From NCBI GenBank assembly GCA_947505105.1, contig CANNKG010000023.1, forward strand, positions 1 through 41,969: 41,969 nt of DNA, read 5' to 3'. The notes beneath the pieces are model-generated. The model searched no databases. It was not told where the DNA came from and saw nothing but the letters and a program-made list of their open reading frames with translations. Made by a program: the position numbers and the translations under genes. The DNA is from Methylococcaceae bacterium. Its GTDB lineage: Bacteria; Pseudomonadota; Gammaproteobacteria; Methylococcales; Methylomonadaceae. Positions 5,654 to 13,324 of the stretch are shown piece by piece; position 1 is the stretch's first letter; each line of letters opens with the position of its first letter.

Positions 5654-6148
5654 TAAAATCACCTCGTTTTGAAAAGTTACCAGAATTCTAACATAAGGCT
5701 TTCAGTAGAAAATCAGCTTAACCCATTGAGATTCCGTATTGAAATAATCAGGATATTCATCATTGGAACTTGTAATTTTACTATCTATGACTAATCTTAA
5801 TCTTATGATCTGTTCACAAAATTACATTTGGCTTGCATCTTAGGTATATCAACAAGTAAACCGTCGCTACGAACCAACTAAAGCTTAATTAAATATAAAG
5901 CTTCGATAATTTTCAACTAAACGGCATGTTATTACTCTTGAAATAATAAAAATTAGTTAAATGATTATCAAAAACAATATCAATTGTTGATCGTCTTATT
6001 CTTTAGAAAATTGTGAGTACTTAATTTTTTAAATTTTTGTTGCAGGCGAATCAGGCGTATACAGGCGATTGAGATGAGTCATCGGGCGGACAATCTCAAT
6101 ACGAATTTTCTACAGATATCAGGTTGGTGAACTTTTTTGGGGGCGCGA
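5654..6148. other. AT-rich intergenic region upstream of the hydrogenase unit
   Basis: This 495-base divergent region separates the TPR-oxygenase gene from the hydrogenase genes and must hold promoters for both. It is very AT-rich up to about 6040 and then changes character. I found no convincing sigma-54 -24/-12 pair and no clear sigma-70 pair. The last 110 bases hold short direct repeats and an inverted repeat, listed separately. Confidence 0.6.
6043..6100. promoter_or_regulatory. Three CAGGCG repeats plus an 8-bp inverted repeat
   Basis: CAGGCG occurs at 6043-6048, 6052-6057 and 6062-6067, spaced about one helical turn apart. It is followed by the inverted repeat ATTGAGAT (6068-6075) and ATCTCAAT (6093-6100). 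The block sits 50-100 bases before the hydrogenase start codon, in the likely leader or promoter. It could bind a regulator or form an RNA hairpin. No function is proven. Confidence 0.4.
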
Positions 6149-7078
6149 ATGACAATTAATGCTTATTGGATGCAAATTGGTGGATGCGGGGGAGATAGCC
6201 TCTCATTTATGAATGTCGAATCGCCTAATATCGATGAATTATTTAGATCGCTTGACATCAATTTGTTGTGGCATCCTTCTTTATCTAATCAATCCGCTAA
6301 GGCACATGATCAACTTGTGAACGATATCCTGAGTGACCAACTGAAAATGGATATTTTTATTGTCGAGGGTAGTGTGATACAAGGCCCTGCCGGCTCCGGA
6401 CTATTCGATACCCGTAATGACATACCGACGAAAGATCTGGTTTATGCCCTCGCTCAACATGCCGAAATTGTGGTAGCAGTAGGCACCTGCGCGGCGTTTG
6501 GAGGATTCGGCGTAGACGACATCATTGAATCAACCGGTTTACAATTTTGTAAAAGTAATAAAGGTGGGTTATTGGGAGCAGCTTTTACCGCACGCTCAGG
6601 TCAGCCCGTGATTAATCTGGCAGGTTGTCCGTGTCATCATGACATTATTGCCGGCACCTTTAATGCGATCGGGAACAACATTCCGCTCTTACTCGACGAC
6701 TTCAATCGACCTCAAGAATGGTATATGACACTCGTACACCAAGGGTGTACGCGCAATGAATATCATGAATATCGTGTTGAAGAAGATGATTTCGGTGAAA
6801 AGGGTTGCTTATTTTTTCATTTAGGATGTGAAGGTCCGTTAGTTTCCGGTATCTGTAATACCAAACTGTGGAATCAACATTCATCTAAAACGCGTGCGGG
6901 CGTTCCCTGTTTCGGTTGTACCTCACCTGACTTTCCAAAACAGACTCCCTTCTTTGAAACTAACAGCATCGTGGGAGTTCCGGTCAAGTTACCTTCAGGT
7001 GTTGATCGAGCTCATTACATGGTTTATAAAGACATGGCCGCAGCGGCAGCCCCAAAACGACTTAAGCACAAAGGATAA
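6149..7078 (+). CDS. [NiFe] hydrogenase small subunit, group 2-like, cytoplasmic
   Basis: This is the electron-transfer subunit carrying three iron-sulfur clusters. It has 309 residues and starts directly with the flavodoxin-like fold, with no Tat signal peptide, so the enzyme is cytoplasmic like HupSL/HupUV (group 2). Cluster motifs in order are GGCGGDS (residues 11-17), VGTCAAFGG, LAGCPCHHD, HQGCTRNEYHEY with a following GCLFFHLGC, then GICNTKLWN and RAGVPCFGC. Unusually, the second position of the usual proximal CxxC is Asp16. From memory, cyanobacterial HupS also lacks this cysteine (Asn there). The LWHPSLS segment is also group 2-like. I start at the ATG at 6149, preceded by a GGGGG run; the open frame reaches back to a TTG at 6137. 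The large subunit follows after 4 bases. Confidence 0.9.
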   Translation: MTINAYWMQIGGCGGDSLSFMNVESPNIDELFRSLDINLLWHPSLSNQSAKAHDQLVNDILSDQLKMDIFIVEGSVIQGPAGSGLFDTRNDIPTKDLVYALAQHAEIVVAVGTCAAFGGFGVDDIIESTGLQFCKSNKGGLLGAAFTARSGQPVINLAGCPCHHDIIAGTFNAIGNNIPLLLDDFNRPQEWYMTLVHQGCTRNEYHEYRVEEDDFGEKGCLFFHLGCEGPLVSGICNTKLWNQHSSKTRAGVPCFGCTSPDFPKQTPFFETNSIVGVPVKLPSGVDRAHYMVYKDMAAAAAPKRLKHKG

Positions 7079-7082
7079 CGTA

Positions 7083-8624
7083 ATGATCTCAGAATCTAAA
7101 ATCATTCATTTACCCTTTAATCGGGTAGAAGGCGACCTCGAAATCACTCTTGAAATTACCGACGGTCAAATCAGTCGAGCCTGGAGTAAAGGCACCATGT
7201 TTCGTGGATTTGAACGAATGATGCAAGGCAGGGCGGCTCTGGATGGTTTGGTCATTACACTTCGCATTTGCGGCATTTGCAGCCTAACGCACTTAAGTGC
7301 TGCAGTTGAGGCATTGGAAGCTATTGCCGAGATAAAACCGCCGGATAATGCGCGACGCTTACGCAATCTTGCGCTAATGGCTGAAACCATTCAAAGCGAT
7401 ATGCGTCAATCCATGCTAATGTTTCTTGTCGATTTTGCTAATCCAGAAAGCTATCGACATCATCCTTTAAGTCTCGAAGCCTTTAATCGATACACACCCT
7501 TATCGGGAACCTCGGCGCTTAGTGCTATAAAGGAAACCAAAAAATTACTCGGCGTAGTGGCTCTGATCGGCGGGCAATGGCCGCATACCTCCTTTATGGT
7601 ACCTGGAGGAGTCACTTGTCAGTTGAATCTAACGGATGCGCTGAAATGTCGCTCAATTTTGACGCATTTCCAATCTTGGTTTGAAACATCTGTCCTCGGC
7701 TGTTCGATTGATCGCTGGCTGGCGATCGATTCATTGGAAGCACTAAATGTCTGGCTAGATGAAGACCCAGCACACCAACGAGGAGACGTCGGTTTTTTCA
7801 TTCGTTTTGCCAGACTAGCCGGTTTAGATAAGATCGGTCGTGGTTATAACAACTTCATCTCCTATGGTAGTCATCCGCTCCCTAGCGAAAATATAGCCAC
7901 GGGAACAGCGCAACGATTATATCCTTCCGGTTTCGCGCAAGGAACTCAAATAATGCCCCTGGACCTAACCCAGATCCAGGAAGATGTATCGTATAGCTGG
8001 TATCAGCAAGAGCAACCATCAATTCATCCTTATCAAGGGCAAACTACCCCTCTTTTCGATGATGAAAACAACGCTCGCTATTCATGGGTTAAAGCACCGC
8101 GCTATGGCGGAATTCCCGCTGAAACAGGCCCCTTAGCCGAAAAAATCATCGGTAAAGATCCATTATTTACGAATTTAATTGATCAATTAGGCGCAAACGT
8201 CTTGACGCGACAATTGGCTCGTTTAACCAGACCCGCTAATTATTTACCGATTATGCACCAATGGCTCAATGAAGTTCTTAAAAATCCCGGTGCCGAATTT
8301 TATCGACCATTTGTTGAAATTCCCGATGGCCAAGGTGCTGGTTTAGTGCAAGCTGCTCGTGGAGCATTAGGTCATTGGGTGACGGTAGAGAATGAAACCA
8401 TCAAAAATTACCAAGTCATCACTCCAACGGCCTGGAATGGCTCGCCTCGAGATAGTGCCGACATGCCCGGTGCCTGGGAACAAGCTTTACAAGGGACACA
8501 CATTCTCAATGTGGAACATCCTATCGAAGCAGGACATGTCATTCGCTCATTCGATCCGTGCTTGGTGTGCGCGGTTCATACCGTCTACAAGGGTAAAACC
8601 GTAGGTAAAATGCGTCTAGGCTAA
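7083..8624 (+). CDS. [NiFe] hydrogenase large (catalytic) subunit, group 2-like
   Basis: This subunit holds the NiFe(CN)2CO active site. The N-terminal motif NRVEGDLEI, the L2 motif RICGICSLTH with its two nickel cysteines, and the C-terminal DPCLVCAVH with the other two are all intact, so it should bind nickel. After the final His there are 14 more residues (TVYKGKTVGKMRLG). That is a cleavable extension, removed by a specific endopeptidase after nickel insertion, and such an endopeptidase gene follows 5 bases downstream. From memory, classical H2-sensor large subunits (HoxC/HupV) end at or near this His and are not processed. This protein is therefore either a processed sensor or a cytoplasmic uptake-type enzyme. 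It has 513 residues; the ATG at 7083 directly follows the small-subunit stop. No hyp genes lie in the window. Confidence 0.92.
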   Translation: MISESKIIHLPFNRVEGDLEITLEITDGQISRAWSKGTMFRGFERMMQGRAALDGLVITLRICGICSLTHLSAAVEALEAIAEIKPPDNARRLRNLALMAETIQSDMRQSMLMFLVDFANPESYRHHPLSLEAFNRYTPLSGTSALSAIKETKKLLGVVALIGGQWPHTSFMVPGGVTCQLNLTDALKCRSILTHFQSWFETSVLGCSIDRWLAIDSLEALNVWLDEDPAHQRGDVGFFIRFARLAGLDKIGRGYNNFISYGSHPLPSENIATGTAQRLYPSGFAQGTQIMPLDLTQIQEDVSYSWYQQEQPSIHPYQGQTTPLFDDENNARYSWVKAPRYGGIPAETGPLAEKIIGKDPLFTNLIDQLGANVLTRQLARLTRPANYLPIMHQWLNEVLKNPGAEFYRPFVEIPDGQGAGLVQAARGALGHWVTVENETIKNYQVITPTAWNGSPRDSADMPGAWEQALQGTHILNVEHPIEAGHVIRSFDPCLVCAVHTVYKGKTVGKMRLG

Positions 8625-8629
8625 GGTCA

Positions 8630-9082
8630 ATGAACTGGACGGTTATAGGTATCGGTAATCGCTTTTTAAGCGGAGACGCTGCGGGAATATTAGTTTATCA
8701 GGAATTGCAACAGCGCATATTGCCTGACAACGTCAGTTTAGTGGAAGGTGGCTTGATGGGTTTAGATTTACTACCATTTCTCGAACGAGGTGGTGGAGTG
8801 ATCTTTGTTGACGTAGTAAGTGGTTTTGCCTCCGAAAGCTCAATAATTGTCTTGAACCAGGAGCAGATTTTGTGTGACATCCACGAAGCGTATAGCCATA
8901 ATACGGGGTTGAGTTATCTATTGGGAGTTTTACCGAAAGTGTATGAAGGTGAGCTTCCTGAACAGATACTATTAATAGGCATTGAAGGCCCACTTACCCC
9001 GCAATTGGTGATCGACGCAGCAAATCGAGTATTAGCCATCGTATCGGAGGATGTTGGAACATGTCAACGCAACTCAATATAG
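8630..9082 (+). CDS. Hydrogenase maturation endopeptidase (HupD/HybD family)
   Basis: It removes the C-terminal peptide of the hydrogenase large subunit after nickel insertion. The 150-residue protein opens with [12 protein letters not shown], the family's GxGN motif. The three metal-binding positions known from HybD (Glu16, Asp62, His93) correspond to Asp16, Asp61 (FVDVVSG) and His90 (AYSHNTGL). Asp replaces Glu at the first position, as in other family members. The C-terminal GIEGP is also typical. It sits between the large subunit and the kinase gene. Its last 22 bases overlap the kinase start at 9061, implying translational coupling of the kinase with hydrogenase maturation. The dedicated protease argues that the large subunit's C-terminal tail is really processed. 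Confidence 0.88.
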
Positions 9083-11883
9083 ATCTCATCAAAGAAAATC
9101 AATTATTGCGAGAAGAGTTGAGATTAGCCCGGGAAGCCGCAAAAATAACATCGGAACAAGTCGTTAATCAGTTTGAAAACACTGAACGGGTATTGCGTGA
9201 TTATCAGGACATGGATGCTGAGCACCGTGCGATTCTGGATGCTGTGTCGCAATTATCAATTATTGCGACTGATCTGCAAGGCACTATTACTTTATTTAAC
9301 AAAGGAGCCTGTAATCTATTAGGTTATTCGGTTAAAGATGTTCTGAATAAAACGAATATCTTAAAAATTTACCAGCCAGAAGAATTGCAGTTGATGAGCA
9401 AGAAACTGGCGCAATCATCACGAATCTCGATCACTGGCTTGCAGATTTTTGATCAAATAGTGCGTCGTAAAATATCGGAATCTCAAAATTGGCACTACCT
9501 TCGGAAAAATGGCAAATTATTGGCCGTCAGTGTTTCTATTACCGGTATTTTCGATGCCAAAAGCAAACACATCGGCTATCTGCATGCGGCGATGGATATT
9601 ACCAAACACATCCAATTGGATAGGGATTTATTAGAAGCCAAAGAGCTTGCAGAGCGAGCGGACAAGGCTAAAAGTGATTTTCTTGCCTGTATGAGTCATG
9701 AAATTCGGACACCTATGAATGCTATTATTGGTATGTCGCACCTAATGCTAAAAACAGACATCTCCGATAAGCAACGTGATTACATTAAAAAAATTCATGG
9801 CTCGGGACAACACTTACTCGGAATTATTAATAACATTTTGGATTTCTCGAAAATCGATGCTGGTAAACTGACCCTTGAAGTTGAAGTTGAAGTTGAAGTT
9901 GAAGTTGAAGATTTTGATTTAAGCAAGGTATTAGACGATGTTACGGTTCTGATCTCGGAAAAAACCAGTGCTAAAGGATTGGAACTTGTTATTGATATCG
10001 ATATGATGGTTCCGAATTATCTTAAAGGTGACTCGCTACGACTGGCACAAATTCTCATAAATTACGCCAATAATGCTGTCAAATTTACTGAAAAAGGTGA
10101 AATCGTTATCCGTATTAAAGTCAAAGAAGATCACGATGACAAAGTGCTGCTATATTTCGGGGTGATTGATACTGGAATTGGGATTACCGAAAAGCAAAAA
10201 GATCTGTTATTCCAATCATTTCAGCAGGCCGATAGTTCAACAAGTCGTAAGTACGGCGGTTCGGGTCTTGGACTTGCAATATCCAAACAACTTGCCGGCT
10301 TGATGGGGGGGGATGTTGGCTTAGAAAGTCAATTCGGTAAAGGCAGTAATTTTTGGTTTACCGCATGGCTAGGTAAATCGGTTGGAAAGCGCAAAAACTT
10401 GATACCTGCCCCCGATTTACGTGGTCGTAGCGTGTTAGTAGTAGACGATAACGAAGTTGCGCGTCAGGTCCTGTGTGAAATGCTTGCCAGTATGTCATTT
10501 ATGGTTCATCAAGCCAAATCCGGCGAAGATGCGCTCAAATTAATCGAACAAGCCTCGGCGAATGGAGCATCCTTCGAAATTATTTTCCTTGATTGGTGGA
10601 TGCCCGGCATGAATGGGCTTGAAACGGTCTCTCAACTTCATAAGCTTCCCTTAACGAATTCCCCTCGTTTAGTGATGATAACCGCTTACGGCGCCGATGA
10701 AATTATCAAAGAAGCTGAATATTGTAACTTGGATGCGTTTCTGGTTAAACCGGTCACGCCTTCGATACTCTTCGATACCACTATACGACTCCTCGGTGGT
10801 CAGATTGATGAGAAATATAGCTCAATTCGTGAATCTGAAGTTTCTAATATCATTGAAAAACTTGGCGCAATCGAAGGGGCTTCCATTTTGTTAGTGGAAG
10901 ATAATTTGCTTAATCAGGAAGTCGCGACAGGGCTTTTAATGGATGCCGGATTTCGAATAGACATAGCCAATAATGGCCAGGAAGCTTTAGACATGGTGTA
11001 TCAGTGTAATTACGACATTGTCTTGATGGATATGCAAATGCCTGTGATGGATGGTATTACCGCTACGATAAATATTCGCCAAGATCCATTGTTCAAAGAC
11101 TTGTCCATTGTTGCCATGACTGCTAATGCAATGAAGCAAGACAGAGATAGATGTCTGGTAGCTGGCATGAATGACTATATCGCCAAACCGATAGATCCTG
11201 ATGAATTATTTAGAGCATTACTTAGATGGATTAAACCAAAACGCAACCTCACTCATGAAGTTCTTACCAGGCCGCCCAAATTAACGCGAGAGCGAGAAGA
11301 ATGGGTTGAATCACTTGTTATTGATCAACTCAACGTTGAATTGGGTCTTAAGCGCGTTCTTGGCAAAACAGACTTATATTTAAATATGCTACGTACTTAC
11401 GTTGAAAATCAGGTAAATGCCCCCGCAGAGCTACGCGCGGCATTTAAGGCACGGCAGTTGGATTTGGCTGAACGCATTTCCCACACTATGAAAAGCCTAA
11501 ACGGTAATATTGGCGCGATCAGCCTTCAGAACATGGCGGCAGAATTGGAGCAAATGATCAAAACTCCGATCAATTTCGAATTGATTGAAGCCAAAATTGA
11601 TGCCTATGAAATCGCGCAATCAGCAATGATTAGCGCACTTAGCACAGCGCTACCACCTAAAAAAATCATCGAAAAAGTAGAGTTGCTGGATACTGAGAAG
11701 AATGAAGAACTGATTAGCCGATTAGTGGAGCTACTATTTAATAATGATAGTGAAGCTTATGATATTTATGAAGAAAACTCCGATCTACTAAACAGCATTC
11801 TTGAGGCAGAAACATTTAAAAATTTAGCTGAGGCCATCAAACAATTCGATTTTAGAAAAGCCTTTGATGTTCTTAAAAATTAA
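9061..11883 (+). CDS. Soluble PAS hybrid histidine kinase (HK-REC-REC-HPt), hydrogenase-linked
   Basis: This is a 940-residue multi-step phosphorelay kinase with no membrane segment. Order: N-terminal coiled coil (about 8-55), PAS (about 57-185), HisKA with His213 ([10 protein letters not shown]), a (Val-Glu)5 tract at 274-283, and a HATPase with an N box (NYANNAVKF, about 334-342), DTGIG and GGSGLGL (about 399-405). REC1 has Asp511 (DWWMPGMNG) and Lys563. REC2 has Asp657 (DMQMPVMDG). A C-terminal HPt domain has His808 ([11 protein letters not shown]). All phospho-acceptor residues are present, so a full His-Asp-(Asp)-His relay is possible. It overlaps the endopeptidase gene by 22 bases, so it belongs to the hydrogenase unit. 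By analogy with HoxJ/HupT, which are controlled by the regulatory hydrogenase, it probably receives a hydrogen signal. No response regulator follows, so the output is unknown. Confidence 0.9.
9874..9909 (+). repeat. In-frame GTTGAA hexanucleotide repeat (five perfect units plus one variant)
   Basis: One CTTGAA (9874-9879) is followed by five perfect GTTGAA copies (9880-9909) inside the kinase gene, encoding Leu-Glu then (Val-Glu)5 at residues 272-283. The tract lies between the HisKA helices and the ATPase domain, where related kinases usually have a single LEVEDFDL-like segment. Copy changes are six bases long and keep the frame. They would alter linker length without breaking the protein. 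Confidence 0.9.
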
Positions 11884-11986
11884 GATTTAATGAAATCAGA
11901 AATTTTGTATCATTCCACCTTTTCATCACTTCGAACAAATTCATATACAATTGCCATTTTCGGTAGCCATTAACAAATCAATTCCT

Positions 11987-13324
11987 ATGCATCAAGCTTC
12001 CGAGCAGTCTATTCCTACTCAGTGCACCGTACTAATTATCGGCGGCGGTCCTGCCGGGAGCAGCGCGGCTACCTTTCTTGCGCAAAGCGGCATTGATGTT
12101 GTGCTGCTCGAAAAACAGGCGTTTCCGCGCAATCAGGTTGGCGAAAGTCTGATCCCGCATTTTTGGAAATTTGCCGATTTATTAGGCGTTACCGAAAAGA
12201 TAAAAGCGGAGCAGTTTGTGATCAAATCGGGCGGCATTTTTGCCTGGCAAGATAAAGTTAGACAGGTAAAATTTGCGGAATTCGGATATGACCGCCCCGG
12301 TTTGCACGTCGAACGCGACCGCTTTGATCATATATTACTGGAACATGCGAAGAGTATTGGTGTTTCGGTCATTACTGAAGTCATCGTTAAAAGAGTCGAT
12401 TTTTCGAATTCCGAATTACCTACGGTGTTCTATACCGACAAACGTGGCGACACTAATCGAGAAAGCAAAATTCGCTGTCGCTACATTATCGACGCTAGTG
12501 GTCATAGCTCGTTTCTCGCCAGTCAACTCGGTACCCGTCAAACCATTAGTTCCGAGCTCAAATTTCTATCGTTGTGGGGCTACTATCGTAACTCCCGCTA
12601 TCTCGGTGTTGATCGCGCCTGTCATACGCCTGATCAAATACAACAGCAGTTGCCGGTCACCTTTGTGATGTCGTTTTCCGACGGTTGGATCTGGCATATC
12701 ATTCTGCGTGAATCCACCAGTGTTGGTCTGGTTGTGCATAACGACAAAACTCGCGGGATGGATAAAGCACAACGCGAACTTTTTTTTAAACAGACCTGCG
12801 CCGAGGTCCCTTATCTGCGCGAACTACTGCGCGATGCTGAATTCATCGAAGATTCATTGCAATTCCGGCCTGATTATTCCTATTATTCAACTCAAATTTG
12901 CGGCGAAAATTATTACTGCATTGGCGATGCTGCCGCGTTTGTAGATCCGATTTTTTCACATGGCGTTCAAAATGCCTTTTACAATGCCTCAATCAGCACC
13001 ATCGCGATCAAAGAATCCTTAAAAAACCCAAGACAGCGCGCCCGCTACAGCCAGCTATGCGAAAGCCGGATGCAGCAGTTTTATGGGTTCTCACGGGCGC
13101 TGTCATTGGGCGATTACGGTATTAATGGCGTGAATAGGGAGCTGGTTAAGCCGTTGATGAAAACATTACCGCCGCTTGAATTGGAACTAATTTACCTCAT
13201 TTCGCAAGTCACTAACCGCTCGGAAAATTTTATTCAACTCGCGCAAGAAACCGGTGTGTGGAATTCGTTTGCTGAACAACATATTGAGCGACTAACCGAA
13301 AATATTCACCTGGATTTTAGTTGA
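11987..13324 (+). CDS. FAD-dependent oxidoreductase, tryptophan halogenase-like
   Basis: The protein begins with a dinucleotide-binding fold (VLIIGGGPAGSSAATFLA, then VVLLEK). It continues with GESLIPHFW and, near the C-terminal third, GDAAAFVDPIFSHGVQNA, both typical of the flavin-dependent halogenase/geranylgeranyl reductase group. The halogenase WxWxIP motif is only partly kept (DGWIWHIIL, no proline), so halogenation is doubtful. It may be a related monooxygenase or reductase. I start at the ATG at 11987 (445 residues); the frame extends to a TTG at 11951, but the added residues do not fit the family. Neither start has a clear ribosome site. The stop TGA shares its last base with the ATG of the next gene, so the two are coupled. 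Confidence 0.78.
   Translation: MHQASEQSIPTQCTVLIIGGGPAGSSAATFLAQSGIDVVLLEKQAFPRNQVGESLIPHFWKFADLLGVTEKIKAEQFVIKSGGIFAWQDKVRQVKFAEFGYDRPGLHVERDRFDHILLEHAKSIGVSVITEVIVKRVDFSNSELPTVFYTDKRGDTNRESKIRCRYIIDASGHSSFLASQLGTRQTISSELKFLSLWGYYRNSRYLGVDRACHTPDQIQQQLPVTFVMSFSDGWIWHIILRESTSVGLVVHNDKTRGMDKAQRELFFKQTCAEVPYLRELLRDAEFIEDSLQFRPDYSYYSTQICGENYYCIGDAAAFVDPIFSHGVQNAFYNASISTIAIKESLKNPRQRARYSQLCESRMQQFYGFSRALSLGDYGINGVNRELVKPLMKTLPPLELELIYLISQVTNRSENFIQLAQETGVWNSFAEQHIERLTENIHLDFS

What the first reader, a model, noticed from the sequence alone, without database searches (positions are those of the whole stretch)
6149..11883. A [NiFe] hydrogenase built into a complete phosphorelay: a probable hydrogen sensor in a methanotroph
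Four genes in a row with gaps of 4 and 5 bases and one 22-base overlap encode small subunit, large subunit, endopeptidase and a soluble PAS-HK-REC-REC-HPt kinase. Neither subunit has an export signal. From memory, sensory hydrogenases HoxBC/HupUV act on PAS kinases HoxJ/HupT, and a 'group 2c' of kinase-linked hydrogenases has been proposed but little studied. This layout fits that group. What differs from the HoxJ case is that all relay domains (His213, Asp511, Asp657, His808) are in one chain and no response regulator is adjacent. In a methane oxidiser this could set methane or hydrogen metabolism by H2 supply.
Basis: partly seen in the sequence, partly recalled or inferred. Interest (0 to 1): 0.8.

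Follow-up and report, generated by a model that had tools for sequence, protein, structure and literature searches.

The report
Hydrogen-sensor operon with a swapped kinase
A methane-eating bacterium carries a soluble hydrogenase that probably works as a hydrogen sensor wired to a signalling kinase; the set looks imported from a lineage now seen mostly in Desulfobacterota, and the genome seems to hold its missing output gene beside the wreck of a second copy.

Summary
The four-gene operon is real and exactly placed. The hydrogenase is neither uptake type 2a nor classic sensor 2b. It lies in a third clade that includes a Methylobacter tundripaludum (group 2c) enzyme, in a branch otherwise found in Desulfobacterota, Planctomycetota and Actinomycetota. 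Desulfobacterota relatives have the same order plus a fifth gene, REC-GGDEF. The window lacks it. Elsewhere in this genome (contig C105) a paralogous kinase precedes a REC-GGDEF, directly behind a degenerate start of the small-subunit gene: apparently a decayed second copy. The window kinase is a mosaic: coiled-coil+PAS input from the hydrogenase-linked lineage, kinase/relay core from a native (FIST-linked) methanotroph kinase. In 236 other family genomes only one partial 31% match to the input module was found. Best reading: cytoplasmic H2 sensor acting through the coiled-coil/PAS module on a phosphorelay, perhaps also in trans on the C105 pair. All function is inferred. New variant of a known kind.

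The parts
6149..7078 (+). [NiFe] hydrogenase small subunit, 309 aa, no Tat-like leader; first cluster motif C-x-x-D (GGCGGD) instead of C-x-x-C
   Evidence: Pfam PF14720/PF01058; nearest solved relative Huc small subunit; alignment
7083..8624 (+). [NiFe] hydrogenase large subunit, 513 aa, both CxxC motifs, C-terminal extension of 14 aa after the last His
   Evidence: PF00374; trees; alignment
8630..9082 (+). HyaD/HycI-type maturation endopeptidase, 150 aa
   Evidence: PF01750, TIGR00072
9061..11883 (+). Soluble hybrid kinase, 940 aa: coiled coil-PAS-HisKA-HATPase-REC-REC-HPt
   Evidence: Pfam; phosphosites His213, Asp511, Asp657, His808
9061..9633 (+). Input module, coiled coil + PAS (aa 1-191): shared with hydrogenase-linked proteins of Desulfobacterota and Actinomycetota and with the C105 kinase of the same genome
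   Evidence: predicted 62-residue helix then PAS fold
9658..9720 (+). Mosaic junction (about aa 200-220): before it closest to C105, after it closest to FIST-linked kinase C71
   Evidence: 60-aa sliding identities; segment identities; AU test
9661..11883 (+). Core HisKA-HATPase-REC-REC-HPt, related to native Methylococcales kinases (captured core)
9880..9909 (+). Five exact in-frame copies of GTTGAA (Val-Glu repeat) between the HisKA and ATPase domains
5663..6148 (.). Upstream intergenic region, presumed promoter; CAGGCGAATCAG and CAGGCGATTGAG 19 bases apart; promoter-like sites in 5663-12000 no more frequent than in shuffles

Best explanation
A cytoplasmic H2 sensor of the group 2c clade. Inferred steps: the small/large subunit pair, matured by its own endopeptidase, binds H2; its redox or conformational state is read by the coiled-coil/PAS input module of the kinase, probably in a complex; this changes autophosphorylation of His213, and phosphate passes Asp511/Asp657 -> His808 -> a response regulator encoded elsewhere. 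Shown by sequence: the set belongs to a branch whose Desulfobacterota members have a five-gene order ending in a REC-GGDEF cyclase; this genome holds one complete hydrogenase copy (window) whose kinase core belongs with native methanotroph kinases and which has no REC-GGDEF beside it, and a second locus (C105) that keeps kinase + REC-GGDEF but of the hydrogenase only a degenerate start of the small-subunit gene. The likely consequence, not shown, is that one hydrogenase now serves two kinases, one with the old cyclic-di-GMP output and one with a new output.
For: Large-subunit tree: window + Desulfobacterota 100/99, branch with Planctomycetota/Actinomycetota 97/95, whole 2c clade 100/97, 2a and 2b separate at 100/100. 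Same gene order in Desulfobacterota (no protease gene found in L054-L057) with REC-GGDEF next in 8 of 8 loci (in L052 the kinase is split and the gene lies behind the second piece, read by eye). The coiled-coil+PAS module occurs in 10 of 11 genomes of these loci (not in the Planctomycetota one, whose kinase has no PAS), each time in the hydrogenase operon by coordinates, with one further weak match (31%) in one genome. Output differs while input stays: kinase in Desulfobacterota, GGDEF in Actinomycetota L059/L060. In other members of the clade protease and kinase are one open frame: 7 loci confirmed by Pfam, L062 and L082, L063, L065, L069, L085, L111. C105: kinase 43% over full length, REC-GGDEF 57% to the Desulfohalobiaceae one, small-subunit remnant 31.2 bits against 0 of 2000 shuffles (best 23.1). 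C105 carries the only RNase PH found in the genome, 86-87% to the three other genomes of the genus, so it is not foreign contamination. HypD present.
Against: No experiment; H2 binding, docking and phosphotransfer are all untested. The response regulator of the window kinase is unknown: its HPt and REC domains resemble C71/C79 kinases more than C105, so the C105 REC-GGDEF need not be its partner. The genome has many other REC and GGDEF proteins (149 matches at E<=1e-5). The PAS cofactor, if any, is unresolved. Of three small-subunit residues that PMC10017518 names at Huc's menaquinone site one is kept and two are replaced (Lys to Arg, Tyr to Phe; mapped by hand on the alignment), so an uptake role is not excluded. 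The remnant is short (37 aa) and matches the window small subunit clearly but single Desulfobacterota ones only weakly or not at all (profile E 0.00022).
Confidence: 0.68

Rival explanations
1. It is an uptake hydrogenase that feeds electrons to a carrier, like Huc (2a), and the kinase is a separate sensor that happens to share the operon.
For: Nearest solved relative is Huc, about 400 bits for the large subunit (entries named as Huc in PMC10017518); C-terminal extension as in 2a, unlike 2b.
Against: Separate from 2a at full support; four 2a loci opened carry NifU-like or DUF1641 accessory genes that the window operon lacks; a signalling gene follows in 62 of 67 clade loci; protease-kinase fusions.
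Confidence: 0.13
2. The hydrogenase is the sensor, but the system is decaying: the swapped core and absent regulator leave no working output.
For: No adjacent regulator; mosaic kinase; the other copy has lost its hydrogenase; the related C71 kinase has its C-terminal part in another frame.
Against: All four frames open, large-subunit CxxC motifs and all four phosphosites intact; large subunit diverged to 59% or less from any relative found, without frame damage.
Confidence: 0.1
3. The kinase senses something else through its PAS domain (oxygen, redox, light); the hydrogenase is regulated by it and is not its input.
For: Closest PDB folds are heme (FixL), flavin (NifL, LOV) and other PAS domains; the C105 kinase keeps the input module without an adjacent hydrogenase.
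Against: In 10 of 10 genomes with the module the best match is the gene beside this hydrogenase, and C105 has a small-subunit remnant in front.
Confidence: 0.09

Closest known systems
Group 2c [NiFe] hydrogenases, 'diguanylate cyclase-linked (putative)' of HydDB (e.g. Methylobacter tundripaludum)
   Same: Same clade of large subunits; order SSU-LSU-protease-signalling protein; large-subunit C-terminal motif close to the printed 2c consensus (SFDPCLVCAVH against SFDxCLVCTVH, PMC4853749)
   Different: Kinase instead of a PAS-GGDEF-EAL protein; 42-45% identity to the nine 2c enzymes of alignment A1; lies in the other branch of the clade
Five-gene set of Desulfobacterota (Desulfocicer vacuolatum, Desulfamplus, Desulforhopalus, Desulfohalobiaceae MAG)
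   Same: Nearest large subunits (52-59%), same order, same kinase input module
   Different: Window kinase core comes from another kinase lineage; no REC-GGDEF next to it
Group 2b regulatory hydrogenase HoxBC-HoxJ-HoxA of Cupriavidus necator
   Same: Soluble hydrogenase with a kinase gene, no export signal; likely the same working principle
   Different: Separate clade; 2b has CxxC at the first cluster, no C-terminal extension, no adjacent protease, and in C. necator a sigma-54-dependent regulator next door
Group 2a Huc of Mycobacterium smegmatis
   Same: Best match among solved structures; a close relative (L049) also lacks the second Cys of the first cluster
   Different: Separate clade; uptake enzyme (PMC10017518); other accessory genes in its relatives

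Membership tests
Group 2c clade | Large subunit in one clade with a known 2c enzyme, apart from 2a and 2b | tested here: met
   Clade 100/97 with M. tundripaludum SV96 locus L092; that this species carries 2c comes from PMC4853749; HydDB itself could not be run; 2a/2b row labels are mine, anchored on C. necator HoxC and Huc-like enzymes
Group 2c clade | C-terminal (L2) motif SFDxCLVCTVH | tested here: inconclusive
   SFDPCLVCAVH: one of the ten named positions differs (consensus from PMC4853749)
Group 2c clade | Linked diguanylate cyclase (HydDB's descriptive name) | tested here: not met
   Kinase in the operon; a REC-GGDEF only on contig C105. I therefore file it in the clade, not as cyclase-linked type
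Kinase-bearing 2c branch (Desulfobacterota type) | Same branch, coiled-coil+PAS hybrid kinase behind the hydrogenase genes | tested here: met
Kinase-bearing 2c branch (Desulfobacterota type) | REC-GGDEF as the next gene | tested here: not met
   Next gene downstream is an FAD-dependent, halogenase-like gene
Group 2b regulatory hydrogenase | Large subunit within the HoxC/HupV clade | tested here: not met
   2b clade 100/100 without the window
Group 2b regulatory hydrogenase | No C-terminal extension, no protease gene | tested here: not met
   14-aa extension and protease present
Group 2b regulatory hydrogenase | H2-dependent effect on a kinase | not testable with these tools
   needs biochemistry
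Group 2a uptake hydrogenase | Large subunit within the Huc-like clade | tested here: not met
   2a clade 100/100 without the window
Groups 2d and 2e | Tree placement | not tested
   No reference sequences of 2d/2e were fetched

The most novel reading that the evidence does not exclude
An imported five-gene H2-to-cyclic-di-GMP circuit was duplicated and then split by complementary loss: one locus kept the hydrogenase and joined its input module to a native kinase core, the other kept the original kinase and REC-GGDEF cyclase. One hydrogenase now drives both kinases through the same coiled-coil/PAS plug, so H2 is reported to two outputs. The plug is a portable hydrogenase-reading module.
Probability: 0.35. 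Interest if true: 0.82.

Novelty: new variant of a known kind. Interest (0 to 1): 0.62.

Why it matters
Group 2c hydrogenases are listed as of undetermined role (PMC5037454 table). The comparison made here gives a testable handle: a coiled-coil/PAS module that stays with the hydrogenase while the output changes among kinase relay, cyclase and chimera. The mosaic and the decayed second copy are a natural domain-swap experiment in H2 signalling. In a methanotroph it would show that H2 informs the cell, not only feeds it.

Tried and rejected
Group 2a and 2b placement: rejected by the trees. 'Kinase linkage is unique to this genome': rejected. The script had put L071 (kinase split in two frames) and L101 under GGDEF; Pfam shows kinase domains in both. 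My group labels list L077, L101 and L102 under 'GGDEF-EAL', which is wrong for L101 and unproven for the other two; the trees themselves do not use labels. 'C105 is contamination': rejected by the RNase PH test. 'Operon inserted at a conserved place': four regions from relatives around the right-hand neighbour gene showed none of the window's left-flank genes, so nothing can be said. Base composition: the operon does not stand out from its neighbours, so transfer rests on trees and distribution only. Promoter and terminator scans: counts as in shuffles. PAS cofactor by fold search: generic PAS neighbours. The AU test of the kinase core was run on a group named after identities had been seen. 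Trees used 60 and 43 of 103 large subunits extracted, by my choice. The input-module alignment A2 uses 9 rows; L055, L057 and L058 were left out. Family-wide protein searches scored only the best candidates of a first look (13 a genome, 12, 9).

Literature: searches with 'group 2c' were made, with two papers found by 13 and 75; two searches asked for sensory hydrogenases with cyclic di-GMP; 27, 91 and 92 for kinase-linked sensory hydrogenases; for HoxJ/HupT; 76 for Huc. I opened eight papers, passages only; none of these passages describes a kinase-linked 2c branch or this operon. Greening 2016 is not held.
Full report
Observation. The window lies in a 5.1-Mb genome of 307 contigs with pmoCAB 5 kb downstream (recognised by eye).

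Which hydrogenase. Among solved structures both subunits match Huc of M. smegmatis best (entry codes given as Huc in PMC10017518). In the family of the host, 37 of 237 genomes (own included) hold a matching large subunit at E<=1e-60, but none of the others exceeds 47% identity. A careful tree of 43 large subunits gives 2a 100/100, 2b 100/100 and a third clade 100/97. This clade splits into a branch with Methylobacter, Methylomonas, Ideonella, Thiorhodococcus and Enterovibrio (100/100) and a branch with Desulfobacterota, Planctomycetota, Actinomycetota and the window (97/95; window + Desulfobacterota 100/99) (same picture with 60 rows). The 2a and 2b labels of rows are mine, anchored on Huc-like enzymes and on C. 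necator HoxC. HydDB lists 2b as histidine kinase-linked and 2c as diguanylate cyclase-linked (putative) (PMC5037454, passages); a Thiomargarita paper says 2c may be co-transcribed with cyclases/phosphodiesterases and names Methylobacter tundripaludum as a carrier (PMC4853749, passage); a 2025 Methylobacter paper reports 2c hydrogenases in that genus (PMC12810054, passages). Small-subunit alignment: the second Cys of the first cluster motif is Asp or Glu in 10 of 10 rows shown of this clade, Asn in 2 of 2 of 2a and Cys in 2 of 2 of 2b. The large subunit keeps a C-terminal extension (14 aa) and a protease, unlike the 2b rows. In the Desulfamplus loci L054 and L056 the extension is gone, and in L054-L057 no protease gene was found, a parallel to 2b.

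What follows the hydrogenase. Of the 67 non-2b loci, 62 have a signalling gene and 61 a readable output: 26 kinases, 35 GGDEF proteins. Desulfobacterota have coiled-coil-PAS-kinase-REC-REC (with Hpt in the three scanned by Pfam: L050, L051, L054), then REC-GGDEF. The Actinomycetota loci have the same coiled coil and PAS followed by GGDEF. In Thiorhodococcus and relatives the protease is fused to the kinase (7 loci by Pfam). Of twelve regions opened around matches in the host's relatives, eight have a GGDEF protein in this place; the other four are 2a- or 2b-like.

The window kinase is a mosaic. Residues 1-190 are closest to a kinase on contig C105 of the same genome (coiled coil 55%, PAS 66%; Desulfobacterota 35-44% in the PAS), whereas the kinase, REC1 and REC2 domains are closest to the C71 kinase (65, 58, 68%), which follows a FIST sensor gene. 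The switch falls at about residues 200-220. In a tree of 34 cores the window core goes with C71 and other Methylococcales kinases, C105 with the Desulfobacterota ones (98% SH-aLRT); forcing window, C105 and Desulfobacterota together is rejected (AU p 0.00015; group named after the identities were seen). Cores 51-59% alike occur in 6 of 100 other genomes of the relatives searched at E<=1e-180.

The input module goes with the hydrogenase. In the 11 genomes behind L050-L060, chosen because they hold the operon, 10 have the module, and by coordinates the best match is each time the operon's own gene; the Planctomycetota genome has none and one Actinomycetota genome has a further weak match of 31%. 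In 237 family genomes only the host has it (C105 and window) at E<=1e-20, apart from a 31% partial match in one genome.

The second locus. On C105 the paralogous kinase (943 aa) is followed 9 bases later by a REC-GGDEF (309 aa; 57% to the Desulfohalobiaceae one, while matches in other family genomes at E<=1e-85 reach at most 52%). About 70 bases in front of that kinase, on the same strand, 37 codons starting with ATG align to the very start of the window small subunit (43%, 31.2 bits), with the cluster Cys lost; tblastn found no trace of the large subunit or protease in that gap. Of 219 control pieces of the genome only three score higher, all within group 1 hydrogenase small-subunit genes; the next piece (22.3 bits) covers the C67 hydrogenase region, the next 20.4. 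None of 2000 dinucleotide shuffles reaches 31.2 (best 23.1), and a profile of the branch finds the same frame at E 0.00022. C105 holds the only RNase PH match, 86-87% to the three other genomes of the genus. So C105 looks like a second copy that lost the hydrogenase, while the window copy lost (or never had) the REC-GGDEF and changed its kinase core. Base composition does not mark the operon as foreign.

Mechanism. Shown: operon, clade, mosaic, module distribution, C105 arrangement. Inferred: H2 binding, docking through the coiled coil/PAS, relay, output. HoxBC-HoxJ in C. necator is the tested precedent for a soluble hydrogenase steering a kinase (PMC10073562, passages). A predicted model shows a 62-residue helix followed by a PAS fold (mean pLDDT 82); PDB neighbours are heme, flavin and other PAS domains, so a cofactor cannot be named. 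Gas-channel positions equivalent to HoxC I62/F110 are Ile/Met in the window (the choice of these two positions and their meaning are recalled).

Verdict. A kinase-bearing member of the 2c clade with a swapped core: new variant of a known kind. None of the paper passages seen here describes it, but the library is partial and only passages were read.

Noticed in passing
L031, L075, L086, L092, L101, L106 (N-terminus of the signalling gene): Six of 18 signalling proteins examined by motif begin with a Rieske-like pattern (CPH...CPxH or similar); Pfam PF00355 in L031, L092 and L101. They are mostly Methylobacter-type GGDEF-EAL proteins; L101 is a kinase. A possible electron acceptor from the hydrogenase.
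   Followed up: partly
L062, L063, L065, L069, L082, L085, L111: Hydrogenase maturation protease (HycI) in one open frame with a PAS hybrid kinase.
   Followed up: yes
window 9880-9909: Five exact GTTGAA copies in frame inside the kinase gene, a hexamer repeat that could change the linker length without a frameshift.
   Followed up: no
L161:8522-8944 and 8871-10988: FIST-linked kinase C71 of the same genome has the part matching window kinase residues 811-937 (HPt region) in another frame (Pfam calls no Hpt there): a real frameshift or an assembly error.
   Followed up: no
L054-L057: Desulfamplus MAG loci of this branch lack an adjacent protease gene, and in the two checked (L054, L056) the large subunit's C-terminal extension is gone as well, as in group 2b.
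   Followed up: partly
L160:8274-14000: The C105 kinase/REC-GGDEF pair lies beside c-type cytochrome and Lrp-like genes that look, by eye only, like a denitrification (nir) cluster.
   Followed up: no
L162:1561-7466: C79: hybrid kinase followed by REC-HD and REC-guanylate cyclase genes, a candidate partner set for C71-like relay cores.
   Followed up: no
L077:982-5906: Pyrinomonadaceae MAG locus of the clade with protease but no kinase or GGDEF gene in the 2.9 kb behind it.
   Followed up: no
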